Below, one piece after another: positions 27,655 through 63,009 of a DNA stretch of 64,000 bases. The stretch lies in assembly GCA_026709935.1 (NCBI GenBank), contig JAPOSC010000048.1, positions 1-64,000 of the forward strand. Reading direction: 5' to 3'. The notes under the pieces were generated by a model that did no database searches, was not told the origin of the DNA, and worked only from the letters and a program-made list of their open reading frames with translations. Source of the stretch: Thiotrichales bacterium. GTDB lineage: Bacteria > Pseudomonadota > Gammaproteobacteria > HK1. Numbering within the stretch: position 1 is the stretch's first letter; each line of letters starts with the position of its first letter. Both the position numbers and the translations under genes were made by a program.

Positions 27655-29709
27655 ATGACCGGCATGTCGGGTGGATGGCGGGTCGGGGTCGATGTGGGCG
27701 GGACGTTCACGGATGTGGTCGCCGTGCACGGCGCGCACCGCGACGCGCGGGTCGCGAAGGTGCCCTCGCGTTCCGACGATCGCGTGGCCGGTCTGCTTGC
27801 AGCGCTCCGGGCCGTCGGTCTCGACTGGACGGACGTGGAGGACCTGGTGCACGGGACCACCCTCGTGACCAACGCCATCGTCGAGGATGATCTGGCCGAT
27901 GTCGCCCTGATCGCCACCCGCGGTTTCTCCGACACCCTGGACATCGGGCGCCAGAACCGCCGTCATCTCTACCGGCTCGACCTTCCGCCCAAGCCTGCCC
28001 CCCAGGTGCCGGCCGGACGCCGGTTCGAGGTGAGTGAGCGGCTCGATCACGACGGGCGGGTGCTGGCCGCGATGGACCCGCGCTTGGTCGAGGATACGCT
28101 CCGGCAGGTCGAGGACAGCGGCGCCGAGGCGGTCGCGGTGTCGCTGCTGCATTCCTACGCCAACCCGGCGCACGAGGAGGCGCTCGGTGAGCGGCTGCGG
28201 GCGCGCTGTCCCTTCGTCGCACTTTCCAACCGCATCAACCCGGAGGCCCGGGAGTACGAGCGCACCGCCACCACGGCACTGAGCGCGGGCGTCATGCCGC
28301 TGGCCGCGAGCTATCTCGATCGGCTCGAAGCCGCGAAGCCGGCCGGGTCGCGGTTGCACCTCTTCCACTCCGCCGGCGGCATGGCCTCGCCGGAGGCGCT
28401 GCGCGAGCTACCGCTCGGGCTTGCCGCCTCCGGGCCCGCGGCCGGAGTGGCCGCCGCCGGCCGCGTCGCCGCGGATCTCGGTATCGGGCATGCCATCAGC
28501 TTCGACATGGGCGGTACCACCACCGACGTCTGCCTCGTGTTCGACGGCGAGGCGCAGATTTCGAGCGACCGCTCGCTGGGAGACCGACCCCTGCGCCAGC
28601 CCATGGTCGCGGTGGAGTCCATCGGGGCGGGCGGCGGCTCCGTCGCCCGGCTCGACCACGGTGCCCTCGCGGTCGGGCCGGAGAGCGCCGGCGCCGACCC
28701 CGGGCCCGCCTGCTATGCCCGCGGGGGCGATCGGCCCACGGTGAGCGACGCCAATCTGGTGCTGGGCTACATGGATTCGGAGCGGGTCATCGGTGGCGAT
28801 ATCCGGCTCGATCCGGGTGCGGCCCGGGCCGTCGTCGCGCCGCTCGCGTCGGCCATGGACATGACCGTGGAGGAGGCTGCGTTCGGCATCGTGCGGGTGG
28901 CCAACGCGACCATGCTGCGCGCGCTGCGTCGGGTCACGGTGGAGCGGGGCATCGACGGGCGCCGGTGCACGCTGCTGGCCTTCGGGGGTGCGGGGCCGAT
29001 GCATGCGGTGGAACTGGCCCGCGCCTTCTCGATCGCCACCGTGGTCATCCCCGCCCACTCCAGCGTGTTTTCCGCTCTGGGATGCGCCGGTGCCGGCATG
29101 AGCTACTCGCAGCAGCGCACGTTGCGCATGGCGGTGGACGCGTGGGACGCGGCGCGCCTCGATCGGGTGCGCCGCGCGCTGAAGTCCCGCCTCGCCGCGC
29201 CCCTGGTCGCGGCCGGATGCCGCGAAGGAGAGGTCGAAGTCGAGGAGGTGGCCGCGATCCGCTACTGCGGACAGAGCTACGCCATCGAGATCGCGGACGC
29301 TCCCTTCGACGATCCGCACCGCCTGACCCGGGCGTTTCTGGACCGACATCGCGCCCTGTACGGTTTCGCGACCGAGGAGCCCTGGGAACTCGTCTCGATC
29401 CGACTGCGAGTCTCGGCCCCGTCGACCGATGGCCCGCGACCGCCGGCGAGCCGCGGCTCGACCGAATCGCCCGAATCCACCGGATCGGCCGGCGAAGCGA
29501 GCGCGGTCCGGACCCTGCCCTGCACCTTCGGCACGGGCGGTCCGGTCCCGACGCCGCGCCATGCCCGCGCCCACCTCGTCGCCGGCCGCGCGCTCGCTGG
29601 TCCCGTCGTGGTCGAGGACGAGTGGTCGACGGTAGTGGTGCCGCCGGGCGCGACCCTCGTCGCGGACAAGGCCGGGCACCTGCACATCGCCACCGGTGTC
29701 AACGCATGA
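27655..29709 (+). CDS. hyuA: Hydantoinase/oxoprolinase subunit A (HyuA)
   Basis: This 684-residue ATP-dependent subunit pairs with HyuB to open hydantoin-type or 5-oxoproline-type rings. The ATP-binding fold starts with VGVDVGGTFTDVVAVHG near residue 10. VHGTTLVTNAIVEDDLADVA near residue 68 and the phosphate-2 region ISFDMGGTTTDVCLVFDGE near residue 280 are family signatures, as is LLAFGGAGPMHAVELA near residue 440. Near the C-terminus a Pro/Ser/Thr-rich stretch interrupts the last domain. The context, with sarcosine oxidase operons 10 kb away, fits N-methylhydantoin as substrate (inference). The gene order hyuA-hyuB-SDR is co-directional with short gaps. Confidence 0.93.
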   Translation: MTGMSGGWRVGVDVGGTFTDVVAVHGAHRDARVAKVPSRSDDRVAGLLAALRAVGLDWTDVEDLVHGTTLVTNAIVEDDLADVALIATRGFSDTLDIGRQNRRHLYRLDLPPKPAPQVPAGRRFEVSERLDHDGRVLAAMDPRLVEDTLRQVEDSGAEAVAVSLLHSYANPAHEEALGERLRARCPFVALSNRINPEAREYERTATTALSAGVMPLAASYLDRLEAAKPAGSRLHLFHSAGGMASPEALRELPLGLAASGPAAGVAAAGRVAADLGIGHAISFDMGGTTTDVCLVFDGEAQISSDRSLGDRPLRQPMVAVESIGAGGGSVARLDHGALAVGPESAGADPGPACYARGGDRPTVSDANLVLGYMDSERVIGGDIRLDPGAARAVVAPLASAMDMTVEEAAFGIVRVANATMLRALRRVTVERGIDGRRCTLLAFGGAGPMHAVELARAFSIATVVIPAHSSVFSALGCAGAGMSYSQQRTLRMAVDAWDAARLDRVRRALKSRLAAPLVAAGCREGEVEVEEVAAIRYCGQSYAIEIADAPFDDPHRLTRAFLDRHRALYGFATEEPWELVSIRLRVSAPSTDGPRPPASRGSTESPESTGSAGEASAVRTLPCTFGTGGPVPTPRHARAHLVAGRALAGPVVVEDEWSTVVVPPGATLVADKAGHLHIATGVNA

Positions 29710-29815: not shown

Positions 29816-31489
29816 ATGAATCCGACCGGAAACACGAGCGCTGCTGTGGATCCCGTGACCCTGGAGGTCATCCGCAACGCGTTGAGCGCGACGGCGGAGG
29901 AGATGTCGCTCGTGGTCATGCGTTCGGCCCGGTCGCCGCTGCTGCGCGAGGCCGGCGACCTCTCCTCGGCGCTGACCGACGCGGATGGTCACCTCATCGC
30001 TCAGGGCCGCGACATCCCCATGCACCTGGGGGTCATGAGTTTCACGGTGCGGGAGTTCCTCAAGCGCGTGCCGAAGGCCCGCCTTGCTCCCGGCGACGTG
30101 TGGTTCCTCAATCTGCCCGAGGTGGGCGGCAACCACCTGCCCGACGTGAAGGCCATTCGGCCGGTGTTCGTCGATGGGACGGTTGTCGCGTTCGCGGTCA
30201 ACCTCGCGCACTGGGCCGACATCGGCGGCGCGGTGCCCGGCAGCTACGTCGCCGGGGCCGTCGATGCGTGGCAGGAGGGGTTGCGCATCCCGCCGTTTCG
30301 CCTCTTCGACGCCGTTGGCCCCGTGCGCGAAAATCTCGACATGGTGCTCGCCAACGTGCGCGGGGCGCAGGAACGCGAGGGCGACATCCTCGCGCAGATG
30401 GCGGCGACCCGAGGGGCGGAGGAGCAGTTGCAGCGCATCTTCGCCGAGCACGGCGCGGACACCGTGCTGGCCGCCATCGCCGCCATTCACGACCGGGCCG
30501 AGGCGCAGATGCGCGAGGCTCTCGCCGCCATCCCCGACGGCGTCTACGCCGGCGAGGACTGGCTCGACGACGACGCCGCGCAGGGCGGGCCGGTGGCGGT
30601 GCGGGTGCGGGTGACCGTCGCGGGCGACCGCGCCACCTTCGACTTCTCGGATACCGCGGACGCGGCCCGGGGGCCGGTGAACACCACCCCGTTCATCGCC
30701 GCCGCTTCCGTCTTCTACGTGGTCAAGGCCCTGTTCGGGCCGGACATCCAGCCGAGCGGCGGGTGCTATCGTCCGCTCGAGATTGTCACCCGTCCCGGCT
30801 CGCTGCTCGACCCCGGCCCGGAGCGGCCGGTGGTGGGTGGCAATCACGAGACCTCGCAGCGCGTCGCGGACGCCGTGTTCCGGGCGCTGGAGCCGACCGG
30901 GCCGGAACGGCTCTCCGCCGGGGGGCCGACCACCTCCGGGCTGGTGCTGTTCGGCGGACGCCGCGCGGACGGGGCCTGGACCACGTTCTACGAGACCCAC
31001 GGAGGCGGGGAGGGTGCCCGGCATGACCGCGACGGCGCTCCGGTAGTGCGGGTCCACATGTCCAACGTAATGAACACCCCGGCCGAGGTGGTGGAGGCGG
31101 AGTACCCGATCCGGGTCGAACGCCAGCGCCTGCGGTCCGGTTCGGGTGGCGCGGGGCGGCATCGCGGCGGCGCGGGGTTGCACCGGGCGTACCGCGTGCT
31201 CTGCGACGACATGTCGGTCACGACGATGTTCGAGCGCCGCGTGGTACCGCCCTACGGGCTGCAGGGAGGAGAGCCGGGGGCGCCGTTCCGGGTGACCGTC
31301 GTTCGCGCGGACGACAGCCGCCTCGATCTGCCGGGCAAGGCCAACATCCGGCTCGACCGCGACGACGTGGTGATCGTGGAGAGCTGCGGCGGTGGCGGGT
31401 ACGGGTCGCCGGAGGCGGCCGGCTCGGAACGCCGCCCGGCCGGCGACTCTTCCGCCGGCGATTCCATGACGACAGGGGGAACGATGTGA
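29816..31489 (+). CDS. hyuB: Hydantoinase/oxoprolinase subunit B (HyuB)
   Basis: This 557-residue partner of HyuA begins with VDPVTLEVIRNALSATAEEM near residue 10, then SPLLREAGDLSSALTDADG and GRDIPMHLGVM, all typical of N-methylhydantoinase B. NGGNxxSQR-like GGNHETSQRVADAVF near residue 340 and ETHGGGEGARHDRDG near residue 395 follow. The protein is full length. Its stop overlaps the SDR start (ATGTGATG), so the next gene is translationally coupled. Confidence 0.92.
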   Translation: MNPTGNTSAAVDPVTLEVIRNALSATAEEMSLVVMRSARSPLLREAGDLSSALTDADGHLIAQGRDIPMHLGVMSFTVREFLKRVPKARLAPGDVWFLNLPEVGGNHLPDVKAIRPVFVDGTVVAFAVNLAHWADIGGAVPGSYVAGAVDAWQEGLRIPPFRLFDAVGPVRENLDMVLANVRGAQEREGDILAQMAATRGAEEQLQRIFAEHGADTVLAAIAAIHDRAEAQMREALAAIPDGVYAGEDWLDDDAAQGGPVAVRVRVTVAGDRATFDFSDTADAARGPVNTTPFIAAASVFYVVKALFGPDIQPSGGCYRPLEIVTRPGSLLDPGPERPVVGGNHETSQRVADAVFRALEPTGPERLSAGGPTTSGLVLFGGRRADGAWTTFYETHGGGEGARHDRDGAPVVRVHMSNVMNTPAEVVEAEYPIRVERQRLRSGSGGAGRHRGGAGLHRAYRVLCDDMSVTTMFERRVVPPYGLQGGEPGAPFRVTVVRADDSRLDLPGKANIRLDRDDVVIVESCGGGGYGSPEAAGSERRPAGDSSAGDSMTTGGTM

Positions 31490-32271
31490 TGAAGCTCGAA
31501 GGCAGGAAGGCAATCGTCACCGGCGCCGCGAAGGGCATGGGCGCGGCGATCACGAGGACCCTCGCGCGCGAAGGCGCCGACATCGTGCTGACCGCGCGCG
31601 ACATCGCGCCGCTGGTGGAGGTCGCGGCGGAGGTTCGCGCGATGGGGCGGGAGTCGTGGGTGGTCGGCTGCGACGTGACCGATGGCCAGGAGGTCAGGGA
31701 AATGGTCGCCAAGGCGATCGAGGTCTTTGAAGGGCGCATCGACATCCTGGTCAACGTCGCCGGGGTCACCGGCCCCATCGAGACCCCGGTGCAGGACATC
31801 GACGTCGACGATTTCGACTACGTCGTCACCGCCAACGAGCGCGGGACCTTCCTTCCGATCAAGTACGTGGTTCCGACCATGATCGCCCAGAAGGAGGGGA
31901 AGATCGTGAACATCGGTGGCACCTCGGGACTGCGCGGCTATGCCATGCGCACCGCCTACAGCGCGTCGAAGTGGGCGGTGCGCGGCATCACCCGCACCGT
32001 GGCACTGGAACTGGGCCCGCACAACATCAACGTCAACGCGGTATGCCCGGGCATCGTGGACGGGCCGCGGATGCAGAAGCTCTGCGAGGAGAAGGCGCGG
32101 GTGCGGGGCTGGACGACCGAGGAAGTCTACGACGAGTACGTTCAGGACATGGCGCTGAAGCGCGTGACCGTCGCGCAGGACATCGCCAACGCGGTGCTGT
32201 TCCTGGCGAGCGAGGACAGCCGGCAGATCACCGGCCAGCACATCGCCGTCGATGGCGGCTGGGACGTGTGA
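31489..32271 (+). CDS. SDR family NAD(P)-dependent oxidoreductase
   Basis: This classical short-chain dehydrogenase of 260 residues has the cofactor motif IVTGAAKGMGAAI at residue 9, NVAGVTGP for the NNAG position, catalytic Ser in IGGTSGLRG, and YSASKWAVRGITR with the Tyr-Lys pair near residue 155. It ends GQHIAVDGGWDV. The ATG at 31489 overlaps the hyuB stop and follows AGGGGGAACG. Located between hyuAB and the molybdenum hydroxylase genes, it likely handles a ketone or alcohol intermediate of the same pathway; the substrate is unknown. Confidence 0.9.
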   Translation: MKLEGRKAIVTGAAKGMGAAITRTLAREGADIVLTARDIAPLVEVAAEVRAMGRESWVVGCDVTDGQEVREMVAKAIEVFEGRIDILVNVAGVTGPIETPVQDIDVDDFDYVVTANERGTFLPIKYVVPTMIAQKEGKIVNIGGTSGLRGYAMRTAYSASKWAVRGITRTVALELGPHNINVNAVCPGIVDGPRMQKLCEEKARVRGWTTEEVYDEYVQDMALKRVTVAQDIANAVLFLASEDSRQITGQHIAVDGGWDV

Positions 32272-32319
32272 GCGGGCCGGCGCACCCGGAGAGATGACAG
32301 CGCCCCGAGGAGCATGACG

Positions 32320-33204
32320 ATGTATGTACCGTTCGAACTGGAGATGCCGGGCGATCTCGCCGGTGCCCTCGGCGCCCTCGCCGCCGGCACCGGTGCGAAG
32401 ACCATGGCCATGGCCGGCGGCACCAATCTGATCGTCGACATGCGCGCGAAGCGCGAGCGGCCCGATCGGGTGGTGGGGCTCGGCCGGGTCGGCGCGCTGC
32501 GGGGCATGGAGTGCGGGGAAGAGTGGATCTCCATCGGCGGCGGGACCACGGTGACCGACCTGCTGCAATCGAAGGAGATCGCCGAGGCGGCGCCCTCCCT
32601 CGTCGAGTCCTCGCGTCTGTTCGCGGGCCTGATGGTGCGCAACACCGCCACCGTAGCCGGCAACATCGCCTGCGGCTCGCCGGCCGCGGACCTGGTGCCG
32701 CCCCTGCTTGCGCTCGACGCCGACGTGACGCTCGCGAGTGTGGCCGGGACCCGGACGCTGCCGCTCGACGAGTACTTCCTGGGCTACAAGCGCGACGTGC
32801 GCCGGCCCGACGAACTGATCACCCGCGTCTCCTGGCCCCGTCTCCCGCAATCATCCGACCAGTCTTTCATCAACGCCTTCTACAAGCTCGCGCGGCGCAA
32901 GGGCGACGCGATCACGGTCACCGGGGTGGCAGTGACGCTGGTTGTCGCCGGCGGGGTGTGCACAAAGGCGCGGGTTGCGCTCGGGGCGGTCGCCCCCGTC
33001 GTGTTCCGGGCGCGGGACGCCGAATCCGTGCTGGAGGGCCGGGCGCTGACCCCGGCGCGGATCGATGAAGCGGCGCGGGCGGCTGCCGCCTCTTCCTGCC
33101 CCATCGACGATGTACGGGCCTCCGCCGCGTACCGCCTCCACACCGTCGAGGCCCTGACCCGGCGCCTGATCGCGCAGGCCTGGCGCCGGTCGACCGACCA
33201 GTGA
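32320..33204 (+). CDS. FAD-binding medium subunit of a molybdenum hydroxylase
   Basis: This 294-residue CoxM/CutM-type subunit carries FAD in the electron path of xanthine-oxidase-family enzymes. MAMAGGTNLIVDMRAKRERP near residue 30 and ISIGGGTTVTDLLQS near residue 70 bind the cofactor; LFAGLMVRNTATVAGNIACG near residue 105 is the second FAD signature. The ATG at 32320 is preferred over 32314 because AGGAG then has 7-base spacing. It is first of the medium-small-large trio, 48 bases after the SDR gene. Confidence 0.9.
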   Translation: MYVPFELEMPGDLAGALGALAAGTGAKTMAMAGGTNLIVDMRAKRERPDRVVGLGRVGALRGMECGEEWISIGGGTTVTDLLQSKEIAEAAPSLVESSRLFAGLMVRNTATVAGNIACGSPAADLVPPLLALDADVTLASVAGTRTLPLDEYFLGYKRDVRRPDELITRVSWPRLPQSSDQSFINAFYKLARRKGDAITVTGVAVTLVVAGGVCTKARVALGAVAPVVFRARDAESVLEGRALTPARIDEAARAAAASSCPIDDVRASAAYRLHTVEALTRRLIAQAWRRSTDQ

Positions 33205-33353: not shown

Positions 33354-33842
33354 ATGTCCACCGAACGCACCATCATGCTCCGCGTCAACGGACGCGACGA
33401 GCCCGGGCGCTTCCCCGCCCATCGCACGCTGCTGGAGGCGCTGCGCCAGATCGGCCACACCGAGGTCAAGAGCGGCTGCGAGAAGGGCGATTGCGGCGCC
33501 TGCGCAGTCCTCGTCGACGGGATGGCAGTGGACAGTTGCCTCACCCTCGCCTGGACGGCGGAGGGGGCCGAGATCACGACCGTCTCCGGCCTGGGTGACC
33601 TCGATGCGCTGCACCCGGTCCAGCAGGCGTTCTCCGACGGCGGCGCCGCCCAGTGCGGTTACTGCACCCCGGGGATCATCATCGCCGCGAAGGCGATCAT
33701 CGACCGGCACCCGGACCCGACCGAGGAGGACATCCGCATCGGCCTGAGTGGCAACCTGTGCCGCTGCACCGGCTACACCAAGGTGTTCGAGGCGGTGAGC
33801 GAGGCGGCCGCGATCATGCGGGCCGGGAGCGACGGGCGATGA
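33354..33842 (+). CDS. 2Fe-2S small subunit of the molybdenum hydroxylase
   Basis: This 162-residue CoxS-type protein has two 2Fe-2S clusters. The plant-type cluster ligands are in KSGCEKGDCGACAVLVDG plus the later SCLTLAW Cys near residue 60. The second cluster is held by QCGYCTPGII and NLCRCTGYTK near residues 100-140. It passes electrons from the Mo centre to FAD. GGAGGAAGTGAACC lies before the ATG. Its TGA overlaps the large-subunit ATG by 4 bases. Confidence 0.94.
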   Translation: MSTERTIMLRVNGRDEPGRFPAHRTLLEALRQIGHTEVKSGCEKGDCGACAVLVDGMAVDSCLTLAWTAEGAEITTVSGLGDLDALHPVQQAFSDGGAAQCGYCTPGIIIAAKAIIDRHPDPTEEDIRIGLSGNLCRCTGYTKVFEAVSEAAAIMRAGSDGR

Positions 33843-36157
33843 ACCGGCCCAACATCCGGTTCCGGCAGGTGGGGCGGCCGCTCACCCGCACCGATGCGCC
33901 CGGCAAGGTCACCGGCCGCACCCCCTACGCCGGCGATTACGTGATGCCGGGCATGCTGCACATGGGGGTGGTGCGGGCGGACATCGCGAGTGCCCGACTT
34001 GTGCGGCTCGACGTCTCGAAGGCGCGGGCGCTCGCAGGGGTGGCCTGCGTCCTCACCGCCGCGGACCTCCCCGAGCGCACCGCGTCCACCGACATTCCGG
34101 GGCAGGTCGGGCAGAAGCGGCTGGACACCGGCCAGCAGATCCTGGTCAGGGAGCGGGTCCGGTATTTCGGCGAGCCGCTCGCGCTCATCGCCGCGGAGAC
34201 CCGCGACATCGCGGATCACGCCATGGAGCTGGTGGAGATCGAGCTCGAACCGATCCCCGGCGTCTACGACCCGCTGGAGGCGATGAAGCCCGGCGCGCCC
34301 GTGGTCACCGCGCCCGACAACATCGTGGCCGAGCGCAGGATCCGGAAGGGGGATGTCGAGGCCGGCTTCGCCGCGGCCGACCTCGTAGTCGAGAACACCT
34401 TCCGCACCCCGTTTCAGGAGCACGCATTCCTGGAGCCCGAGGTGGGGCTCGCGTGGGTGGACGAGAACGATGTGGTCAACATCCGCGTCTCCACCCAGGT
34501 GATCGAGCACTTCCGGCCCATCGCCGACGCCATCGGGGTGCCGCACAACAAGGTGCGCATCCGCGGCGCCCTGGTCGGCGGCGGTTTCGGGGGCAAGGAG
34601 GACCTCACCGTCGAGGTGTACCTGGCTCTGCTCACGAAGCGCACCGGCCGTCCGGTGCGGCTGGAGTACACGCGCGAGGACTCGTTCGTGGGCCACGGCA
34701 AGCGCCACCCCTTCATCCTGACCTACCGCACCGGGGTCACGAAGGAGGGCAAGATCACCGCGCTCGACGTGACCATGGTGGCCGACTCCGGGGCTTACGT
34801 GTTCCTGAGTCCCTACGTCCTGCTCTACGCTCTGGTGGCCGCTCCCGGCCCCTACCGGGTGGACAACCTCAATGTCTTCGCCCGCGCGGTGGCGACCAAC
34901 AACATGTTCACCAGCGCCTTCCGGGGGTTCGGCGCGCTCCAGGCCTGCGCCGCCTACGAGCAGCAGATGGACGAGGTGGCGCAGGCGGTCGGCCTCGACC
35001 GCCTGGAACTCCGCCGACGGAACTTCCTGAAGACCGGCGAGCCGATGTCCACGGGTTTCGTGCCGCCGAGCGCGATCTGGACCGACCAGTGCGCCGAACG
35101 GGCCTGGGCCGCGCTCGGCGAGCCCGCTCCGGCCGAGGGTCCGCGCTGCGTCGGCCGCGGCATCGCCTGCTACCAGCAGAGCTACGGCCGGCTCACCTTC
35201 CTGCACGATACCTCGGAGGCGTGGGTCGGGGTCGAGATGGACGGCACCGTGGTGGTGCGATCCGGGGTCACCGACATCGGCGCCGGCCAGGTCTCGGCCC
35301 TCGGCCAGATCGCGGTCGAGGTCCTCGGCGTCACCCTCGACAACGTCGTCGTCTACAACAGCGATTCCGCGGTGACCCCGCTTGCCGGCACCACCACCGC
35401 GACCCGCGCCCTGTACATGACCGGCAACGCGGTGAAGCAGGCGGCGGAGGGGGTGCGGGCGCGGCTCGTGGACCGGGCCGCGAGGGCCTTCGGGGTCGAG
35501 CCGGATGCGGTGGATCTGGGCGACAACCTCGCCTTCGTGGTGGACGACCCGGAAAAATCGATGCCCCTCGTCGAGCTGGTACGGACCTGCGGCGCGGAAG
35601 GCATCCACCGCTCCGAGCTTGCGATGTTCCGTGCGCCGTTCACCGACTTCCTGGACCCGGAGACCGGTCAGGGCCAGGCCCATCCCGACTACGCCTACGG
35701 GGCGCACGCGGTCGAGGTTGCGGTGGACGTGGACACCGGCGAGGTCGAGGTGCTGAAGAGCGTGGCCGCGCACGATGTCGGCCAGTGCATCAACCCCGCC
35801 GCGGTGGAGGGTCAGATCCAGGGCGGCGCCCAGAACGGTCAGGGGTACGCGCTGAGCGAGGAAATGCTCTACGAGGAGGGGCGGCTGATCACGCCGTCGT
35901 TCAGCGAGTACCTGATGCCGACCGCCATGGACATGCCGAAGGTGGAGTGCATCATCCTGGAATCCCGCAGCGGCGTCGGTCCCTACGGGGCGAAGGGTAT
36001 CGGCGAGCCGGCCATGACCCCGGTGGCGCCGGCCATCGCCAACGCGGTCGCGGACGCGATCGGGGTGCGCGTGTTCGAGATGCCGATCACGCCGGAACGG
36101 GTGGTCAGGGCGCTGAAGCGGCGCGACGAGGCCGCACGGAGCGGGCCGGTGGCATGA
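33839..36157 (+). CDS. Molybdopterin-binding large subunit (xanthine dehydrogenase family)
   Basis: This 772-residue catalytic subunit hydroxylates a carbon of an aromatic, purine-like or N-heterocyclic substrate. GRPLTRTDAPGKVTGRTPYA opens the first domain. GALVGGGFGGKEDLTVEVYL near residue 245 and SAFRGFGALQACAAYEQQMD near residue 360 are Mo-cofactor contacts. AHDVGQCINPAAVEGQIQGG near residue 645 and GPYGAKGIGEPAMTP near residue 715, with the catalytic Glu in GIGEP, close the active site. The AFRGFG motif argues against form I CO dehydrogenase, which has AYRCSFR. No coxD/E/F/G maturation genes are present. With hyuAB and the SDR it may form one ring-degrading pathway. Confidence 0.92.
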   Translation: MNRPNIRFRQVGRPLTRTDAPGKVTGRTPYAGDYVMPGMLHMGVVRADIASARLVRLDVSKARALAGVACVLTAADLPERTASTDIPGQVGQKRLDTGQQILVRERVRYFGEPLALIAAETRDIADHAMELVEIELEPIPGVYDPLEAMKPGAPVVTAPDNIVAERRIRKGDVEAGFAAADLVVENTFRTPFQEHAFLEPEVGLAWVDENDVVNIRVSTQVIEHFRPIADAIGVPHNKVRIRGALVGGGFGGKEDLTVEVYLALLTKRTGRPVRLEYTREDSFVGHGKRHPFILTYRTGVTKEGKITALDVTMVADSGAYVFLSPYVLLYALVAAPGPYRVDNLNVFARAVATNNMFTSAFRGFGALQACAAYEQQMDEVAQAVGLDRLELRRRNFLKTGEPMSTGFVPPSAIWTDQCAERAWAALGEPAPAEGPRCVGRGIACYQQSYGRLTFLHDTSEAWVGVEMDGTVVVRSGVTDIGAGQVSALGQIAVEVLGVTLDNVVVYNSDSAVTPLAGTTTATRALYMTGNAVKQAAEGVRARLVDRAARAFGVEPDAVDLGDNLAFVVDDPEKSMPLVELVRTCGAEGIHRSELAMFRAPFTDFLDPETGQGQAHPDYAYGAHAVEVAVDVDTGEVEVLKSVAAHDVGQCINPAAVEGQIQGGAQNGQGYALSEEMLYEEGRLITPSFSEYLMPTAMDMPKVECIILESRSGVGPYGAKGIGEPAMTPVAPAIANAVADAIGVRVFEMPITPERVVRALKRRDEAARSGPVA

Positions 36158-36352
36158 CGGGCGTCGGCTGATCGACGTTGATCGCCATCGGGCACCAACG
36201 ATGAGCCATTTCGCTCGGGGTGCCCGGATCTTGTACAGGCGCACGCTTGGTATCCGGATGACACGTTTGGCGCGTGAGCTTCTTCGTCGATATTTCGGCG
36301 ATTCTCGCGTTCTTCGACTCGGATGGCACTCGACAATTGCCGGAGGCTGGTA

Positions 36353-38639: not shown

Positions 38640-38730
<91 letters not shown>

Positions 38731-46206: not shown

Positions 46207-47502
<1,296 letters not shown>

Positions 47503-54700: not shown

Positions 54701-54757
54701 GCGCGCATCACCGAGCCCGGATTCTTCGACCCCGAGGGAGCACGTGCGCATGATTGA
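51752..54757 (+). CDS. soxA: Sarcosine oxidase subunit alpha, operon 2
   Basis: This 1001-residue alpha subunit has the full domain set of copy 1: FDGERYSGFAGDTLASALLA, the dinucleotide motif VLVVGAGPTGLTAAHAAGRT, SYVNRYAVRPGTAAVVFTNN, the A3 region DVTAADIALAAREGYRSVEH, and GcvT domains to the end. The C-terminal residues GARAHD are encoded by a segment that is repeated, with changes, 185 bases downstream at the start of soxG. The gene is otherwise intact. Confidence 0.94.
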   Translation: MTRADFRLSVGGRIDRDRLVGFSFDGERYSGFAGDTLASALLANGVRLVGRSFKYHRPRGVVTDGVEEPNALVQLGAGAIGEPNARATQVEIHDGLTAASQNRWPNVRFDVGAVNGHLSALLPAGFYYKTFMWPGKWWMKYEYFIRRAAGLGRAPTGPDPEIYDKSWAHCDVLVVGAGPTGLTAAHAAGRTGARVLVVDERPEPGGHLLGTRRTINDAPAGEWVSAMVSELADMDEVRILSRATALGYYDHNSLTVLERRTDHLPYGERGGRVRQRLWKVRAKQVVLATGAHERPLVFRNNDRPGVMLASAAQSYVNRYAVRPGTAAVVFTNNDSAYDPALDLADAGLRVTVVDVRTELSDLRRAQLRRRGIELLAGHAIISVRGAKAVTGVSVASLTAAATGYTGTSRRIRCDLVCMSGGWNPAIHLFSQSGGRLAFDEARGVFVPGEVRQAQFSVGGCNGTGVLAFALSEGREAGKSAAAACGFRMRGGTALPRVDVVEEVPIRLFWTVPPRHPDRRLDKHFVDFQNDVTAADIALAAREGYRSVEHLKRYTTTGMGTDQGKTSNVNALAILSETLGADIAATGTTTFRPPYTPVTFGALAGRDVGELSDPVRTTPMHRWHVQQGATFEDVGQWKRPWYYPRDGESMREAVDRECLAARNAVGILDASTLGKIDVQGPDAAEFLDRIYTNGWKRLEVGRCRYGLMCTEDGMVFDDGVTLRLGDHHYLVHTTSGNAARVLGWMEEWLQTEWPELRVYCTSVTEQTATASISGPFARRLLAALTTDIDLDRDAFPFMHWRDGHVAGLPARVARVSFTGESSFEVSVPAGYGLSLWTALMHAGQRYGITPYGTEAMHVLRAERGFIIAGQDTDGTVTPIDLGMEWIVSRRKDFIGRRSLDRADTVRDDRKQLVGLLTERSEDVLPEGGQIVERVTALPMRMIGHVTSSYYSANLGHSIALALVRGGRSRHGEQVMVPLERSVMSARITEPGFFDPEGARAHD

Positions 54758-54950
54758 GCGGGCCTTCGGTGCAGGAACGGTCCGGAAATTTCACCGATTC
54801 CCGGCTGCGGGCACGGATCTGACTGTTTACGCTGCGTTAAACACAGCCAGGGTGTCGATGCCTGACCATCTCCGTACCCTCGCTTCGCGAATCGGTGAAA
54901 TTTCCGGGCTAGCGAGCGATGAGCGCGCAGGAGCACCCGCGCATGACTGA
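54738..54950. mobile_element. Inverted-repeat (MITE-like) insertion between soxA and soxG of operon 2
   Basis: Between the two genes lie 19-bp perfect inverted repeats: CCGGAAATTTCACCGATTC at 54782-54800 and its complement at 54889-54907, enclosing 88 bases. Outside them a ~27-bp imperfect direct repeat (GGAGCACGTGCGCATGATTGAGCGG-like, 54738-54764 and 54923-54950) flanks the unit. No transposase frame fits inside. The arm sequence is related to the inverted repeat at 12012-12069. The likely history is an insertion at the original soxA/soxG overlap, with duplication of the target. Confidence 0.55.
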
Positions 54951-55557
54951 GCGGTATCAACGCCGTAGCGCCCTCGCGCACCTGGGGCTCGAGGCGCGAG
55001 CGTCCGTCGTCGCCGGGGAAGGGGGGGTGACGCTCCGCGAGGCCCCCATGCGTGGCCTTCTGGTGCTGCGCGGAGATGGCGGCGGCAAGGCGTTCCGCAG
55101 CGAGGTGACGGCGGTACTCGGGATCGAGCCCGTGGTTGAACCGTTGACCGCGGCGCGCCGGCGCGATCTGTCCATTCTCTGGCTCGGACCGGACGAGTGG
55201 CTCGTGATCACCCCCGATCGCCGACGGGCACGCATCGAGCGGATGTTGCGCGACGCGCTGGTCGGGCAGCACGCGGCGGTGACCGACGTGTCGCACGGTC
55301 GCACTGTCCTCGTCCTCTCCGGCCCGGATGTCCTTGCGGTCCTGGCGAAAGGATGCTCTCTCGATCTCCATCCCCGCATGTTCGGCCCCGGGCGCTGCGC
55401 GCAGTCGAGGCTTGCCAAGTGCCAGGCCCTGATCCACCAGACGACCGATGCACCGGAGTTCGAAATCCACGTGCCGCGCAGCTTCGCGCAGTACGCATGG
55501 ATGTGGTTGGAGGACGCGGGACAGGAGTTCGATCTCCGCATCGCGCCGGCGGAGTAG
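54943..55557 (+). CDS. soxG: Sarcosine oxidase subunit gamma, operon 2
   Basis: This gamma subunit (204 residues from the chosen start) has the GcvT-like pattern: ILWLGPDEWLVITPDRRR near residue 75, AAVTDVSHGRTVLVLSGPDV near residue 105, and IHVPRSFAQYAWMWLEDAGQ near the end. The ATG at 54943 follows GGAGCACCCGC; an upstream ATG at 54919 lies in the repeat segment and lacks a good site. The stop codon is inside an 18-bp tandem repeat. An inserted repeat element separates it from soxA. Confidence 0.88.
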   Translation: MTERYQRRSALAHLGLEARASVVAGEGGVTLREAPMRGLLVLRGDGGGKAFRSEVTAVLGIEPVVEPLTAARRRDLSILWLGPDEWLVITPDRRRARIERMLRDALVGQHAAVTDVSHGRTVLVLSGPDVLAVLAKGCSLDLHPRMFGPGRCAQSRLAKCQALIHQTTDAPEFEIHVPRSFAQYAWMWLEDAGQEFDLRIAPAE

Positions 55558-57385: not shown

Positions 57386-58285
57386 CTACGCCACCGGCAC
57401 CTCCACCCCATGCTGTCGGCAGGCGGCGAGCACGGTGTTGTGCAGGAGACAGGCGATGGTCATCGGTCCCACACCGCCGGGTACCGGCGTGATGCCCGCC
57501 ACGATCGGAAGCGCGCTCTCGAAGTCGACGTCGCCCACGAGCCTGGTCTTCCCGTTGCCCGCGTCGATCCGGTTGATGCCGACGTCGATGACCGTCGCCC
57601 CCGGCCGGATCCAATCTCCGGGGACCATGTGGGGTCGACCGACCGCGGCGACGAGGATGTCCGCCCGCCGGCACTCATCCGCCAGGTCGCGGGTCCGCGA
57701 GTGGGCGATGGTCACCGTGCAGCTCTCGCGCACCAGCAGATGCGCCATGGGCTTGCCCACGATGTTGGACCGGCCGAGCACGAGCGCCCGCGCGCCCGAG
57801 AGGTCGCCGAGTCGGTCCTTCAGCAGCATCAGGCAGCCGAGGGGTGTGCATGGAACCAGCCCGTCGCCGCCCACCGCGAGCAGGCCCGCATTGGTGGTGT
57901 GGAAGCCGTCGACATCCTTCGCCGGATCGATGGTCGCAATGATCGCGTCGGCTCCGATCTGCGCCGGCAGCGGAAGCTGCACCAGAATTCCGCTCACATC
58001 CGGGTCGTCGTTGAGCTGTCGCACCATCGCCAGGAGCGCTTCCTGCGAGGTGGTCGGGGGCAGCCGATGCTCGAACGAGCGCATGCCAGCCGCTCGGGTC
58101 TGTTTCGCCTTGTTGCGCACGTAGACCTCGCTGGCCGGATTCTCGCCGACGAGCACTACCGCAAGTCCCGGCTCGATACCGTGGCGCTCCTTCAGCGCGC
58201 CGACCTGCGTCCCGACGCGCGCCCGCAGCCCGGCCGCGAATGCCTTTCCGTCAATGATCCTCATGTCCGAAGCGCGGTCGCTCAT
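57386..58285 (-). CDS. folD: Methylenetetrahydrofolate dehydrogenase / cyclohydrolase
   Basis: This bifunctional enzyme (299 residues) converts methylene-THF to formyl-THF. [20 protein letters not shown] near residue 40 contains the catalytic Tyr and Lys. [20 protein letters not shown] near residue 95, [12 protein letters not shown], and the Rossmann motif [19 protein letters not shown] near residue 170 follow. The ATG at 58285 has GGGGGAAG upstream; the second ATG at 58264 would also give a normal protein. It is 35 bases before folC and likely shares a transcript. Confidence 0.95.
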
Positions 58286-58793
58286 GTGACTTCCCCCATG
58301 GCCGATGCATCGTGCCCGTCGCGGCGGCGGGAGGCTAGCAGGTTCACCGCCTTGCTCCAACGACACCGGTGGAGGCCGGAGCGGTGACATCCGCAGTCGA
58401 GCCGGTGTGCGCACTTTCCGGCGCTCGATGCCCCGGCCGATATCCAGGGCGATATCCAGGACGATATCCGGGTCGATGTCCGGGTCGATCTTGGGGACGC
58501 GAAACGATACCGATACAGGGGGAGAACACCGGGAGGGAATGGATGTGCATGGCTCCGGCCCGCTGTCGCATTTCGGTAATCCTGCGTCGCAATCGCGTCA
58601 GATTGGAGGTCCGGGGCTGATAGTCTGCGCGCCACGTACCGCGCTGGGCGCGGTCCGGGGACGACGTGCGTTTGGAGTGTGCGCGCCGCTCGTCCGGGGG
58701 CGGCACGCCACTCGCGATTCGTGCGTGTGCGCCCGCGCATGAGAAGCGTTCCGCTCTTGTTACCGGGGCCGATGTCGCCGAGGAGCCGCCGCC
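58286..58793. other. 508-base divergent gap with 12-bp tandem repeats
   Basis: No gene is seen between folD and the corrinoid protein. The main structure is the tandem repeat at 58423-58494. The rest must hold the promoters of both directions, but no clear boxes or B12-riboswitch motif were found by eye. Confidence 0.4.
58423..58494. repeat. 12-bp tandem repeat, six units, intergenic
   Basis: Six units of consensus GGNCGATATCCR run without gaps. The same period is used inside the flavoprotein gene at 3777-3848, but with another sequence. Confidence 0.75.
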
Positions 58794-59537
58794 ATGCAGG
58801 GTGACGAATTCGATCGTGAAGACGATGCCGGCGAAGAGGAAGAACTCGATCTGCGCACGCTGCCCGACGACGAGCTCGTCCGGCAGATGCACGACGATCT
58901 CTACGATGGCCTGAAGGACGAGATCGAGGAAGGCACGCACATCCTGCTGGAGCGCGGGTGGACGGCGAAGCAAGTCCTGGACGATGCGCTCGTCGAGGGC
59001 ATGCGCATCGTCGGGATCGACTTCCGGGACGGCATTCTCTTCGTGCCCGAGGTGCTCCTCGCCGCCAACGCGATGAAGGGCGGGATGACGATCCTCCGCC
59101 CGCTGCTCGCCGAGACCGGTGCGACCACGATCGGCAAGGTGGTCATCGGCACCGTCAAGGGCGACATCCACGACATTGGCAAGAACCTGGTGGGGATGAT
59201 GCTCGAAGGCGCCGGCTTCGAGGTCATCGACCTCGGCATCAACACCGACGCGGACGAGTTCCTGGCCGCACTGGACGAGCACCAGCCGGACATTCTGGGC
59301 ATGTCGGCCCTGCTCACCACCACCATGCCGTACATGAAGGTGGTCATCGACACCCTGAAGGAGCGTGGGCTGCGCGACGACTACACCGTGCTGGTCGGTG
59401 GGGCACCACTCAACGAGCAGTTCGCGGAGGCGGTGGGCGCGGACGCGTACTGTCGCGACGCGGCGGTTGCGGTCGAGACCGCCAAGGACTTCGTGATGCG
59501 CCGCCACAATGTCCGAGGGGCCGCGCTCTCCGCCTGA
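58794..59537 (+). CDS. Corrinoid (B12)-binding methyl-carrier protein
   Basis: This 247-residue protein has an N-terminal four-helix cap (DELVRQMHDDLYDGLKDEIE region, residues 27-100) and a Rossmann-like B12 domain with the cobalt-ligand motif GDIHDIGKNLVGMMLEGAGF near residue 123. MSALLTTTMPYMKVVID and VLVGGAPLNEQFAEAVGAD follow, as in MtbC/MttC/MtgC-type proteins. It would carry a methyl group on cobalt between a first methyltransferase and the downstream pterin methyltransferase. The extra acidic leader of about 20 residues is unusual. GAGGAGCCGCCGCC precedes the ATG. Confidence 0.92.
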   Translation: MQGDEFDREDDAGEEEELDLRTLPDDELVRQMHDDLYDGLKDEIEEGTHILLERGWTAKQVLDDALVEGMRIVGIDFRDGILFVPEVLLAANAMKGGMTILRPLLAETGATTIGKVVIGTVKGDIHDIGKNLVGMMLEGAGFEVIDLGINTDADEFLAALDEHQPDILGMSALLTTTMPYMKVVIDTLKERGLRDDYTVLVGGAPLNEQFAEAVGADAYCRDAAVAVETAKDFVMRRHNVRGAALSA

Positions 59538-60957: not shown

Positions 60958-63009
60958 ATGACGTCTCGCCCGGAGAGTGATCCGAAGACCGATGGCCAAG
61001 GCGGGGACGCGCTCGTTGTTTTCACTCCGTCCGGGCGGCGGGGGCGGTTTCCGACCGGGACCCGGATTCTCGATGCGGCCCGCGCCCTCGGGGTGGACCT
61101 CGATTCCGTGTGCGGAGGGCGGGGGATCTGTGGCCGCTGCCAGGTGGTACAGAGCGTCGGGGAGTTCGCCAAGCACGGGGTGAGTTCCCGGGCCGAGCAC
61201 CTCTCTGAATTCGGTCCGATCGAGCGCCGCTACCACGAGAAGCGGGCGCCGCTTGCCCCGGGACGCCGCCTGGGCTGCTCGACCACGGTATTCGGCGACG
61301 TCGTCATCGACGTGCCCCCCGACAGCCAGGTCCACCGGCAGGTGGTGCGCAAGCGCGCCGAGGTGCACGCCATCAAGGTCGATCCGGTGGTGCGCCTGCG
61401 CTATGTCGAGGTCGCTCCCCCCGACATGCACGAACCCTCCGGCGATCTCCGCCGGCTCGAGGTGGCGCTCGGCGAGGAATGGGATCTTTCGGACCTGCGG
61501 TGCGACCTCCAGGTGCTGGAGACCCTGCAGGCAGCCCTGCGCGCCGGCAACTGGCGCGTCACCGTCGCAGTGCACGGCGACCGCGACATCATCGCGGTGT
61601 GGCCGGATCTCGGGGATCGGGTGTACGGGGCGGCGGTCGATATCGGTTCGACCACCATCGCGGCGCATGTCTGCGATCTCGTATCCGGCGACGTCATCGC
61701 CTCGGCCGGCGCCATGAACCCTCAGATCCGGTTCGGTGAGGACCTCATGAGCCGGGTCTCGTACGTGATGATGAACCCGGGCGGAGAGCGGGAGATGACC
61801 GCCGCAGTGCGCGCCGCGATCCGGGACCTGCTCCGCGAAGCGGCGGCGCAGGGCGGTATCGCGCCGGATGAGATCCTGGACGTGACCCTGGTCGGCAACC
61901 CCATCATGCACCACCTCCTGCTCGGCCTGAATCCGGTGGAGCTCGGCCAGGCGCCGTTTGCGCTCACCGTCGATCGCGCGGTCGATCTGCCGGCCGGTGC
62001 GCTCGACCTCGGGCTTCACCCGGGCGCGCGCGCCTACGTGCTGCCGTGCGTGGCGGGGCATGTGGGCGCCGACACCGCCGGGGTCATCCTCTCCGAAGCG
62101 CCGTACCTGCGCGACGAGGTGAGCCTGGTGGTGGATGTCGGCACCAACGCCGAGATCGTGCTCGGCAACCGGGACCGGATGCTCGCGGCGTCGAGCCCGA
62201 CCGGTCCTGCGTTCGAGGGCGCCCAGATCAGCGGCGGACAACGGGCCGCGCCCGGCGCCATCGAGCGGGTGCGCATCGATCCGGCGACTCTGGAACCGCG
62301 GCTCCGGATCATCGGCAGCGACGCCTGGTCGGACGAACCGGGCTTCGATGCGGCTGCGGTCACCGGGATCTGTGGCTCGGGCATCATCGAGGTGGTGGCG
62401 GAGATGTACCTCGCCGGGATCCTCGACGAGGACGGAGTGATTCGCGCGGATGCCGCCCGGCACAGTGACCGCGTGGTCCAGGACGGGCGCACGTACGCCT
62501 ATGTCCTGCATCGGAGTGGTATCGAGGTGCGGGTGACGCAGAACGACGTGCGGGCCATCCAGCTCGCGAAGGCGGCACTGTACGCCGGAGTACGGCTGCT
62601 GATGGATCGCCTCGGGGTGGATCGGGTCGACCGTATCCGCCTCGCGGGGGCGTTCGGGAGCCACATCGACGTCAAGTACGCGATGGTGCTCGGGCTGGTG
62701 CCGGACTGCGCCCTGCCGCACGTGACCTCGGCCGGCAACGCGGCCGGTACCGGCGCCCGTATCGCACTGCTCGACCGGAGCGCACGCTCGGAGATCGAGC
62801 GCACGGTACGCCGCATCGAGAAAATCGAGACCGCCGTCGAGCCCCGCTTCCAGGCGCACTTCGTCGAGGCGATGGCCATCCCCCACAAGACCGCCGCCTA
62901 TCCGGAGCTTGCGAAAGCGGTCACGCTGCCGGCCCGCAAACCCTCGGGTGCGCGCGGAGAAGGCGAGGGCGGAGACCGCCGGCGCCGGCGGCGGGCGAGG
63001 GCGCGCTGA
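60958..63009 (+). CDS. Corrinoid-protein reductive activator (2Fe-2S + ASKHA, RACo/RamA-like)
   Basis: This 683-residue protein should reduce inactive Co(II) corrinoid back to Co(I) with ATP. The N-terminal ferredoxin domain has ligands in DSVCGGRGICGRCQVV near residue 45 plus a later Cys in RRLGCSTTVFG near residue 105. A linker domain follows. The ATP-binding ASKHA domain starts at YGAAVDIGSTTIAAHVCDLV near residue 223, with VDVGTNAEIVLGNRDRMLAA near residue 395, GICGSGIIEVVAEMYLAG near residue 470 and LAGAFGSHIDVKYAM near residue 560. The C-terminal DUF4445-type region is complete, ending in a basic tail. It acts on the corrinoid protein encoded upstream (inference from order). Confidence 0.92.
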   Translation: MTSRPESDPKTDGQGGDALVVFTPSGRRGRFPTGTRILDAARALGVDLDSVCGGRGICGRCQVVQSVGEFAKHGVSSRAEHLSEFGPIERRYHEKRAPLAPGRRLGCSTTVFGDVVIDVPPDSQVHRQVVRKRAEVHAIKVDPVVRLRYVEVAPPDMHEPSGDLRRLEVALGEEWDLSDLRCDLQVLETLQAALRAGNWRVTVAVHGDRDIIAVWPDLGDRVYGAAVDIGSTTIAAHVCDLVSGDVIASAGAMNPQIRFGEDLMSRVSYVMMNPGGEREMTAAVRAAIRDLLREAAAQGGIAPDEILDVTLVGNPIMHHLLLGLNPVELGQAPFALTVDRAVDLPAGALDLGLHPGARAYVLPCVAGHVGADTAGVILSEAPYLRDEVSLVVDVGTNAEIVLGNRDRMLAASSPTGPAFEGAQISGGQRAAPGAIERVRIDPATLEPRLRIIGSDAWSDEPGFDAAAVTGICGSGIIEVVAEMYLAGILDEDGVIRADAARHSDRVVQDGRTYAYVLHRSGIEVRVTQNDVRAIQLAKAALYAGVRLLMDRLGVDRVDRIRLAGAFGSHIDVKYAMVLGLVPDCALPHVTSAGNAAGTGARIALLDRSARSEIERTVRRIEKIETAVEPRFQAHFVEAMAIPHKTAAYPELAKAVTLPARKPSGARGEGEGGDRRRRRRARAR

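What the first reader, a model, noticed from the sequence alone, without database searches (positions are those of the whole stretch)
27655..63009. N-methyl ring to sarcosine to C1 locus: a possible complete N-methylhydantoin/creatinine-type route
HyuA/HyuB, a molybdenum hydroxylase trio, an SDR, a TMA-dehydrogenase-like enzyme, two complete soxBDAG operons, metF, folD, folC and a corrinoid methyl-transfer set all lie within 36 kb. Known biochemistry: N-methylhydantoinase gives N-carbamoylsarcosine, then sarcosine, which sarcosine oxidase demethylates to THF. The sequence shows the genes. That they form one pathway, and that the Mo hydroxylase acts on the same N-heterocycle, is inference. A carbamoylsarcosine amidohydrolase, needed for the route, is not in the window.
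Basis: partly seen in the sequence, partly recalled or inferred. Interest (0 to 1): 0.7.

Follow-up and report, generated by a model that had tools for sequence, protein, structure and literature searches.

The report
Predicted histamine-ring degradation cluster beside methyl-cycle genes
The stretch holds two separate gene sets side by side: one that probably breaks down histamine or a related ring compound by an unstudied route, and one that recycles methyl groups, so the proposed single creatinine-type pathway is not supported.

Summary
Unit A (27655-38449, all + strand): HyuA, HyuB, SDR, a three-subunit Mo hydroxylase, and a flavoenzyme that is histamine-dehydrogenase-like (917 bits to a solved histamine dehydrogenase, 550 to trimethylamine dehydrogenase; 10 of 11 proposed site residues kept). 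A tRNA-Ser and the SRP RNA lie between. HyuAB-SDR stands beside the Mo hydroxylase in 22 of 59 orthologous loci, none with SoxBDAG in its flank; sox1 also occurs in relatives lacking that Mo hydroxylase. The genome shows no credible carbamoylsarcosine amidase. Beside the same Mo hydroxylase, HyuB+SDR (23) and a D-hydantoinase-family enzyme (11) never co-occur (0 of 59), so I read HyuAB as the ring opener after ring oxidation. Best guess: an oxygen-independent imidazole-4-acetate (histamine) route, analogous to Pseudomonas Hin but built from other enzyme families. Substrate unproven; diamine-derived lactams are the main rival. A hydantoinase, carbon-nitrogen hydrolase and SoxBDAG run does exist in two other genomes.

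The parts
27655..29709 (+). HyuA: ATP-binding subunit of a hydantoinase/lactamase-type enzyme (unit A)
   Evidence: Pfam Hydant_A_N/Hydantoinase_A; DVGGTFTD at 13, DMGGT at 284, GADPGP at 346; best solved relative 7hk5 N-methylhydantoinase 375 bits, 6yra (CapAB) 326
29816..31489 (+). HyuB: metal-binding hydrolase subunit (unit A)
   Evidence: Pfam Hydantoinase_B 597 bits; CapB metal ligands D41/H99/D102/H124 kept as D48/H107/D110/H132; 216 bits to 7hk5, 213 to 6yra
31486..32271 (+). SDR oxidoreductase, role unknown (unit A)
   Evidence: Pfam adh_short_C2; beside each HyuB of 74% identity or more in the 23 loci
32314..33204 (+). Mo hydroxylase FAD subunit (unit A)
   Evidence: Pfam FAD_binding_5, CO_deh_flav_C
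33354..33842 (+). Mo hydroxylase [2Fe-2S] subunit (unit A)
   Evidence: Pfam Fer2, Fer2_2
33839..36157 (+). Mo hydroxylase molybdopterin subunit (unit A)
   Evidence: Pfam MoCoBD_1/2, Ald_Xan_dh_C; 72-92% orthologs in 7 of 37 relatives
36323..38449 (+). Histamine-dehydrogenase-like FMN/4Fe-4S enzyme, HADH (unit A)
   Evidence: 917 bits to 3k30, 910 to 6de6, 708 to 6l6j, 550 to TMADH; 10 of 11 site residues kept
38640..38730 (-). tRNA-Ser(GGA), between units A and B
39038..39134 (+). Bacterial small SRP RNA
   Evidence: Rfam RF00169 66.9 bits
39229..40485 (+). soxB1 (unit B)
   Evidence: TIGR01373 712 bits, over cut-off
40558..40842 (+). soxD1
   Evidence: Pfam SoxD
41003..44002 (+). soxA1
   Evidence: TIGR01372 1346 bits, over cut-off
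43962..44609 (+). soxG1, divergent
   Evidence: TIGR01375 83 of 144 bits
44786..45340 (-). nitrile hydratase alpha (VCTLCSC)
   Evidence: Pfam NHase_alpha 257 bits
45475..45783 (-). nitrile hydratase beta, C-terminal half as own gene
   Evidence: Pfam NHase_beta_C
45780..46103 (-). nitrile hydratase beta, N-terminal half as own gene
   Evidence: Pfam NHase_beta_N
46207..47502 (-). ahcY, adenosylhomocysteinase
   Evidence: TIGR00936 626 bits, over cut-off
47722..48888 (-). metK, methionine adenosyltransferase
   Evidence: TIGR01034 494 bits, over cut-off
49073..50035 (-). MetF-family methylene-THF reductase, divergent
   Evidence: Pfam MTHFR 117 bits; TIGR00676 68 of 294 bits
50178..51428 (+). 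soxB2
   Evidence: Pfam DAO; 63% identical to SoxB1
51456..51755 (+). soxD2
   Evidence: TIGR01374 over cut-off
51752..54757 (+). soxA2
   Evidence: TIGR01372 1472 bits, over cut-off
54919..55557 (+). soxG2
   Evidence: Pfam SoxG 104 bits; TIGR01375 125 of 144 bits
55740..57407 (-). folC-type Mur-ligase-family protein; start not fixed
   Evidence: Pfam Mur_ligase_C/M
57386..58414 (-). folD
   Evidence: Pfam THF_DHG_CYH and _C
58794..59537 (+). MtgC-type corrinoid protein
   Evidence: Pfam B12-binding, B12-binding_2; NF047996 211 of 370 bits
59748..60656 (+). MtgD-type methyl-THF:corrinoid methyltransferase
   Evidence: PRK07535 365 bits, over cut-off 259
60958..63009 (+). RamA/RACo-like corrinoid activator
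   Evidence: Pfam RACo_C_ter, Raco_middle, RACo_linker

Best explanation
Two neighbouring but separate modules. Unit A (27655-38449) is a catabolic cluster for an imidazole amine, most likely histamine: the histamine-dehydrogenase-like enzyme deaminates the amine to an aldehyde, which is oxidised to the imidazole-4-acetate-type acid (enzyme not identified here); the Mo hydroxylase puts a water-derived oxygen on a ring carbon, making a cyclic amide or ureide; HyuAB then activates that carbonyl with ATP and opens the ring. The SDR has no assigned step. Shown: gene content, conserved linkage, catalytic motifs, histamine-site residues, mutual exclusion of HyuAB with a D-hydantoinase-family enzyme. 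Inferred: substrate, step order, products. Unit B (39229-63009) is a methyl-group module: sarcosine oxidases, folate C1 enzymes, a MetF-family enzyme, split methionine synthase/betaine methyltransferase core (MtgCD plus RamA-like), MetK and AhcY.
For: HADH identity: 917/910 bits to the two solved histamine dehydrogenases against 550 for TMADH; 67% identity to 3k30 over the N-terminal 412 columns and 10 of 11 site residues kept; the residue pattern holds in the orthologs of five other Mo-linked loci (L079, L081, L082, L094, L107) with F/Y and N/H variation, while 6l6j and TMADH differ at the four sites compared. Linkage: HyuA+HyuB+SDR beside the Mo ortholog in 22 of 59 loci; HyuAB in 6 of 7 relatives. 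Ring-opener swap: HyuB+SDR 23, D-hydantoinase family (c8) 11, both 0, neither 25 of 59 (Fisher p 0.004; loci share ancestry); a second Mo hydroxylase in 7 of 11 c8 loci against 2 of 23 HyuB loci. A carbon-nitrogen hydrolase (possible N-carbamoylase) lies directly beside c8 in three genomes. Different feeders lead to an R-CH2-COOH-type acid: HADH (6 of 59 plus window), class III aminotransferase plus ALDH (5), TPP 2-oxo-acid decarboxylase (4 at 53% identity or more), indolepyruvate-oxidoreductase-like (5). Unit B: same gene order in G004 and the sox2-folC-folD-mtgC-mtgD-RACo part in three other genera; the MtgD search finds no MetH-length frame in G000; five full MttB-family genes elsewhere in the genome, as expected for the published MtgBCD system (PMC12478193, sections 4 and 9 read).
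Against: HADH is not always beside the Mo hydroxylase: in G002 and G004 it lies by sox1 and far from it, and it is seen in only 6 of 59 loci. Solved histamine dehydrogenases also take agmatine and diamines (PMC10180351, passages), and Tyr181 is Leu here. The best solved relative of the aminotransferase is 6g4b, which I recall as belonging to caprolactam work and which would fit a lactam route. 25 of 59 loci have neither ring opener, 12 of 39 if at least 3 kb are held on both sides. The c8 matches range from 30 to 100% identity, so some may be other enzymes of that family. No imidazole-acetaldehyde dehydrogenase is visible in unit A, and the SDR is unexplained. The carbon-nitrogen hydrolase has no ortholog in the genome (best 31%).
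Confidence: 0.5

Rival explanations
1. Diamine/lactam route: the amine dehydrogenase turns putrescine or a similar amine into an aminoaldehyde that cyclises to an imine; the Mo hydroxylase oxidises the imine to a lactam; HyuAB opens the lactam with ATP; an aminotransferase and an aldehyde dehydrogenase finish the omega-amino acid.
For: HyuAB resembles caprolactamase (NCBIfam CapA 425 bits; 6yra 326 bits). Five HyuAB loci carry a class III aminotransferase and an ALDH. ABC transporters of a kind that includes polyamine importers (my reading of the Pfam matches) lie beside HyuAB in several loci. Solved histamine dehydrogenases also oxidise agmatine, and one of them putrescine (PMC10180351, passages).
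Against: Does not explain why orthologous Mo hydroxylases sit with a D-hydantoinase-family enzyme, a second Mo hydroxylase and a carbon-nitrogen hydrolase, which suggests ureide chemistry. HyuA scores higher against a solved N-methylhydantoinase than against 6yra (375 and 326 bits), though HyuB is a near tie (216 and 213).
Confidence: 0.2
2. One reading: an N-methylated ring is opened by HyuAB to a carbamoyl N-methyl amino acid, then sarcosine, which the adjacent sarcosine oxidases demethylate into the folate pool.
For: HADH lies next to sox1 in the window, G002 and G004. G038 and G040 carry second Mo hydroxylase, hydantoinase family, carbon-nitrogen hydrolase and SoxBDAG in one run, with the Mo ortholog on the same contig. 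HyuA's best solved relative is called N-methylhydantoinase.
Against: No SoxBDAG in the flanks of any of the 23 HyuB+SDR loci; tRNA-Ser and SRP RNA lie between; sox1 occurs in relatives without the Mo ortholog; G038/G040 SoxB is no closer to SoxB1 (66-67%) than the best-ranked plasmid SoxB is (67.8%); no credible carbamoylsarcosine amidase; no ortholog of the carbon-nitrogen hydrolase in the genome.
Confidence: 0.1
3. Another nitrogen ring, such as indoleacetate: a Mo dehydrogenase forms an oxindole-type lactam and a HyuAB-type lactamase opens it, as in anaerobic indoleacetate degradation.
For: A gamma-lactamase of the HyuAB family in indoleacetate metabolism is described in PMC5214803 (passages); the Mo dehydrogenase step is recalled. 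IorA-like genes lie in five more distant loci.
Against: The hydantoinase-family and carbon-nitrogen-hydrolase partners fit a ureide better than an indole lactam; the amine enzyme is histamine-type. No Iaa reference sequence was compared.
Confidence: 0.1

Closest known systems
Histamine (Hin) pathway of Pseudomonas putida U (PMC8231116 and PMC6467879, passages read)
   Same: Amine to imidazole acetaldehyde to imidazole-4-acetate, ring oxidation, hydrolytic ring opening are the proposed steps
   Different: Hin uses an aminotransferase, an ALDH, the FAD monooxygenase HinF and amidases; here a histamine-dehydrogenase-like enzyme, a Mo hydroxylase and ATP-dependent HyuAB. No Hin sequence was compared directly.
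ATP-dependent caprolactamase CapAB / N-methylhydantoinase / 5-oxoprolinase family
   Same: Two subunits in order HyuA-HyuB, ATP motifs and all four CapB metal ligands kept
   Different: Only moderate scores (CapA 425 of a 1000-bit equivalog cut-off); genetically tied to a Mo hydroxylase
Histamine dehydrogenase of Nocardioides simplex and Rhizobium sp.
   Same: 910-917 bits, 10 of 11 site residues
   Different: Tyr181 (Phe in the Rhizobium enzyme by the alignment) is Leu
MtgCD/split methionine synthase and glycine betaine methyltransferase (PMC12478193 sections 4 and 9; PMC5764234 passages)
   Same: Separate corrinoid protein, pterin methyltransferase and RamA-like activator near sarcosine-demethylation genes; no MetH-length frame found; MttB-family genes in the genome
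   Different: Here directly clustered with metK, ahcY, two sox operons and a nitrile hydratase

Membership tests
Histamine dehydrogenase | Closer in sequence to solved histamine dehydrogenases than to TMADH | tested here: met
   917 and 910 against 550 bits
Histamine dehydrogenase | Proposed histamine-site and catalytic residues (Gln65, Ile74, Phe77, Glu79, Asn115, Tyr176, His179, Tyr181, Trp267, Asp270, Asp358 in 3k30 numbering; from PMC10180351 passages, His179 by analogy with its Rhizobium counterpart) | tested here: met
   10 of 11 identical, Tyr181 to Leu
Histamine dehydrogenase | Activity on histamine | not testable with these tools
   needs an assay
ATP-dependent hydantoinase/lactamase (HyuAB, CapAB) | ATP motifs in A and Asp-His-Asp-His metal site in B | tested here: met
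N-methylhydantoin (creatinine) route | N-carbamoylsarcosine amidase in the genome | tested here: not met
   one isochorismatase-family gene, 42 bits to 1nba and 31.5 to 26st, best 73 bits to a putative isochorismatase; genome 95.9% complete
N-methylhydantoin (creatinine) route | Conserved hyuAB-sox neighbourhood | tested here: not met
   0 of 23 HyuB+SDR loci; 1 of 7 relatives, about 27-31 kb apart
N-methylhydantoin (creatinine) route | Creatinine deaminase | not tested
   not searched; two creatininase-family genes found but that is another enzyme
Hin histamine pathway | HinF/HinC/HinH homologs | not tested
   no Hin sequences were at hand and the genome was not searched for them; the Pfam matches of unit A include no aminotransferase, FAD monooxygenase or amidase
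MtgCD split methionine synthase/betaine methyltransferase | Separate corrinoid protein and pterin methyltransferase, RamA-like activator, no full-length MetH | tested here: met
   (MetE and DUF1638 were not searched)
MtgCD split methionine synthase/betaine methyltransferase | MttB/MtgB and homocysteine-binding subunit in the genome | tested here: inconclusive
   five full MttB-family and three S-methyltransferase genes; which one partners MtgC is unknown; NCBIfam MtgC cut-off not reached (211 of 370)

The most novel reading that the evidence does not exclude
A widespread, undescribed, monooxygenase-free route for imidazole compounds (histamine, histidine-derived acids, perhaps N-methylated ones): a Mo hydroxylase oxidises the ring, and evolution swaps the ring opener between ATP-dependent HyuAB (mostly with one Mo hydroxylase) and a D-hydantoinase-type enzyme (mostly with two Mo hydroxylases, in three genomes with a carbon-nitrogen hydrolase and in two of these with SoxBDAG). 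If so, some 'N-methylhydantoinase' genes in symbiont metagenomes are not creatinine genes.
Probability: 0.4. Interest if true: 0.65.

Novelty: new variant of a known kind. Interest (0 to 1): 0.5.

Why it matters
Published work on sponge microbiomes reads N-methylhydantoinase gene counts as creatinine degradation (PMC6742649, passages). Here such a gene pair lies in a conserved cluster with a Mo hydroxylase and, in several genomes, a histamine-dehydrogenase-like enzyme, so that reading may be wrong in part. The cluster also offers a testable oxygen-independent way to open imidazole rings, and a natural experiment in which two unrelated ring hydrolases replace each other beside one oxidase.

Tried and rejected
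One pathway over the whole 36 kb: rejected on neighbourhood, non-coding RNAs between the units, sox distribution and the missing amidase. TMADH identity: rejected. A special link of sox1 to unit A through HADH adjacency: weakened, because sox1 occurs in G001, G005 and G012 without the Mo ortholog (G005 does have an HADH ortholog, 78%) and because the SoxB of G038/G040 is no closer to it than the best plasmid SoxB. Search of plasmids for the Mo subunit: 1165 records matched, none at 60% identity or more, best-ranked row 42.5%. MttB-family genes beside the ring clusters: none in L075-L153; one 43% hit in a G014 stretch. Paper searches for the combination: the listings seen (15 of 61, 15 of 349, 0 of 0, 12 of 22, 3 of 3 papers) showed no title or abstract opening that describes a Mo hydroxylase plus HyuAB histamine cluster; unlisted papers and subscription literature were not seen. 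Creatine/sarcosine and ergothioneine searches gave no matching cluster in the rows listed. tRNA-Ser next to sox1: present in G002, G003 and G004; of 7 short loci with about 1.5 kb flanks, in G005 only.

Limits of the counts. The 79 loci are the best 80 of 92 confirmed stretches, found with peptides of the window's own Mo subunit. 20 of the 79 were left out of the 59 because their Mo subunit is under 55% identical. The c31 and c14 hits of 27-38% are generic family members and were not counted as feeders. L102 and L115 have HyuA/HyuB of 36-41% without SDR and were not counted as HyuAB. L080 and L127 carry a distant second Mo-subunit hit at the locus edge and were counted as having two. L132 was counted as 'neither' although its wider contig holds a c8 enzyme (39%) and a second Mo hydroxylase; moving it would give 12 c8, still 0 both. 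The Mo tree (quick method) shows HyuAB loci clustered (9 label changes against 18.3 shuffled) and c8 hardly so (9 against 10.3), and warns of long branches among distant rows; the Fisher values therefore overstate independence.

Full report
What the window is. The window is bases 1-64000 of contig C8 of a 3.78 Mb draft genome, 88 contigs, 95.9% complete. The genome holds 11 HyuB matches and 16 matches to the Mo subunit, so finding HyuAB near some other catabolic gene is weak evidence by itself.

The observation. Three things change the picture. First, the 'TMA-dehydrogenase-like' protein at 36323-38449 scores 917 and 910 bits against the two solved histamine dehydrogenases, 708 against 6l6j (which I take to be a nicotine-pathway amine oxidase; recalled) and 550 against trimethylamine dehydrogenase. 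Of 11 residues of the proposed histamine site and catalytic triad, 10 are identical; Tyr181 is Leu (residue list from PMC10180351, passages read). Orthologs beside the same Mo hydroxylase in L079, L081, L082, L094 and L107 keep the pattern with F/Y and N/H variation, and relatives of 60% identity or less depart from it at two or more sites. Second, 44786-48888 is coding on the minus strand: a nitrile hydratase in three genes, ahcY and metK. Third, a tRNA-Ser and the SRP RNA separate the hyu/Mo/HADH run from the first sox operon. Within 27655-38449 all genes point the same way with gaps from -4 to 165 bases.

Is unit A a unit, and is sox part of it? A scan of genome contigs with the Mo subunit returned 79 loci. 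Of these, 59 have a Mo subunit at 55% identity or more; 22 of 59 carry HyuA, HyuB and SDR, 23 HyuB and SDR. None of the 23 has a SoxBDAG operon in its flank; the flanks are at most 10 kb and often shorter. Two other loci do have one: L101 and L132. Among 37 relatives searched, 7 have the Mo ortholog at 72-92%. In stretches of 28-60 kb around it, HyuAB is near it in 6 of 7 (G002 lacks it; in G004 about 4 kb separate HyuB from SDR), and sox is present in G003 only, with HADH about 27 kb and the Mo subunit about 31 kb from sox1. Conversely, SoxB1 is found at 70-90% in G001-G005, G009, G011, G012, G014 and G015, including G001, G005 and G012, whose best full-length Mo matches are 34-36%. So unit A and sox are inherited independently. 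One fact speaks the other way: HADH sits 0.8-2.7 kb from sox1 in the window, G002 and G004, while the Mo genes of G002 and G004 are elsewhere. The simplest reading is that unit A arrived next to sox1 in this genus and was later broken up; that is inference.

What unit A does. HyuA keeps both phosphate motifs and the adenosine motif, and HyuB keeps the four metal ligands shown to be essential in caprolactamase (PMC8453981, passages), so it should be an active ATP-dependent hydrolase of a cyclic amide. The informative comparison is across loci. Beside orthologous Mo hydroxylases there is either HyuB+SDR (23), or a D-hydantoinase-family enzyme (11), never both, and neither in 25 of 59; with at least 3 kb on both sides the numbers are 18, 9, 0 and 12 of 39. 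The D-hydantoinase-family loci have a second, distant Mo hydroxylase in 7 of 11, the HyuB loci in 2 of 23. In G038, G039 and G040 the order is second Mo hydroxylase, hydantoinase family, carbon-nitrogen hydrolase; the last is called a possible N-carbamoylase here only by family (148 of a 410-bit cut-off for the nearest named model). This looks like two alternative ways to open the product of ring oxidation: one oxidation followed by ATP-driven opening, or two oxidations giving a hydantoin that opens without ATP. On the Mo tree the ring-opener labels change several times, so replacement rather than one split is likely, with the caveats in Tried and rejected.

Which ring? Genes beside the oxidase differ but lead to the same kind of acid: HADH in the window and 6 loci; a class III aminotransferase with an ALDH in 5; a TPP-dependent 2-oxo-acid decarboxylase at 53% identity or more in 4; an indolepyruvate-oxidoreductase-like enzyme, four times with an ADP-forming CoA ligase, in 5. 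Together with a hydantoinase-family enzyme and a possible N-carbamoylase this points to an imidazole acid such as imidazole-4-acetate, the known intermediate of bacterial histamine use (PMC8231116, passages). In Pseudomonas the ring is oxidised by the FAD monooxygenase HinF and opened by amidases (PMC6467879, passages); here a Mo hydroxylase and HyuAB would do the two jobs without molecular oxygen. The chief rival is a diamine route through a cyclic imine and a lactam, which fits caprolactamase-like HyuAB, the aminotransferase and polyamine-type transporters, but not the hydantoinase-family and carbon-nitrogen-hydrolase partners. The SDR has no assigned step in any version.

Unit B. The order sox1, nitrile hydratase alpha, ahcY, metK, metF, sox2, folC, folD, mtgC, mtgD, RACo is the same in G004; G002 has it in two blocks; sox2, folC, folD, mtgC, mtgD, RACo is kept in G006, G009 and G011, with an extra metF-like gene. 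The MtgD search finds no MetH-length frame in G000, while several relatives have both. Separate corrinoid, pterin and RamA-like proteins are the split methionine synthase of Phaeobacter (PMC5764234, passages) and the shared core of methionine synthesis and glycine betaine demethylation in Ruegeria (PMC12478193, sections 4 and 9). The genome has five full MttB-family genes and three S-methyltransferase genes elsewhere. Unit B is thus best read as handling methyl groups from betaine-type compounds, with sarcosine oxidases at the end and MetK/AhcY closing the SAM cycle (inference); the nitrile hydratase's place is unexplained.

G038 (record titled Burkholderiaceae) and G040 (record titled Pseudomonadota; in the same clade of the Mo tree) carry the Mo ortholog, a decarboxylase, a second Mo hydroxylase, a hydantoinase-family enzyme, a carbon-nitrogen hydrolase and SoxBDAG, in G040 with an ALDH of 39% identity as well. 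If their substrate were an N-methylated imidazole, the product would be an N-methyl amino acid suited to a sarcosine-oxidase-type enzyme. That is a real candidate for a ring-to-N-methyl-amino-acid-to-C1 route, but it looks rare: the carbon-nitrogen hydrolase was found in 1 of 74 genomes of the G038 family at E 1e-60, namely G038 itself, and its best match in the window's genome is 31%.

Noticed in passing
44786-46103: Nitrile hydratase split into three genes (beta-N, beta-C, alpha with VCTLCSC), the architecture I recall from thiocyanate hydrolase, between sox1 and ahcY; alpha kept at 82-86% in three congeners.
   Followed up: partly
L228 (G038:C4:25001-41719), L229 (G040:C43:15001-25618): Run of second Mo hydroxylase, hydantoinase family, carbon-nitrogen hydrolase and SoxBDAG in two genomes.
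   Followed up: partly
L111, L112, L114, L117, L118: Chloroflexota and Bipolaricaulota loci pair the Mo ortholog with an indolepyruvate-oxidoreductase-like enzyme; four of the five have an ADP-forming CoA ligase and four an MtgC-like corrinoid protein nearby.
   Followed up: no
7600-11329: Two aconitase-family proteins on the minus strand with a separate aconitase C-terminal domain gene between them.
   Followed up: no
G000:C5:50709-53208 and G000:C72:3695-8125: An S-methyltransferase match directly before an MttB-family match, and a HyuB match about 1.4 kb before another MttB-family match.
   Followed up: no
1335-3905: DAO-GcvT fusion of the dimethylglycine-dehydrogenase kind on the minus strand.
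   Followed up: no
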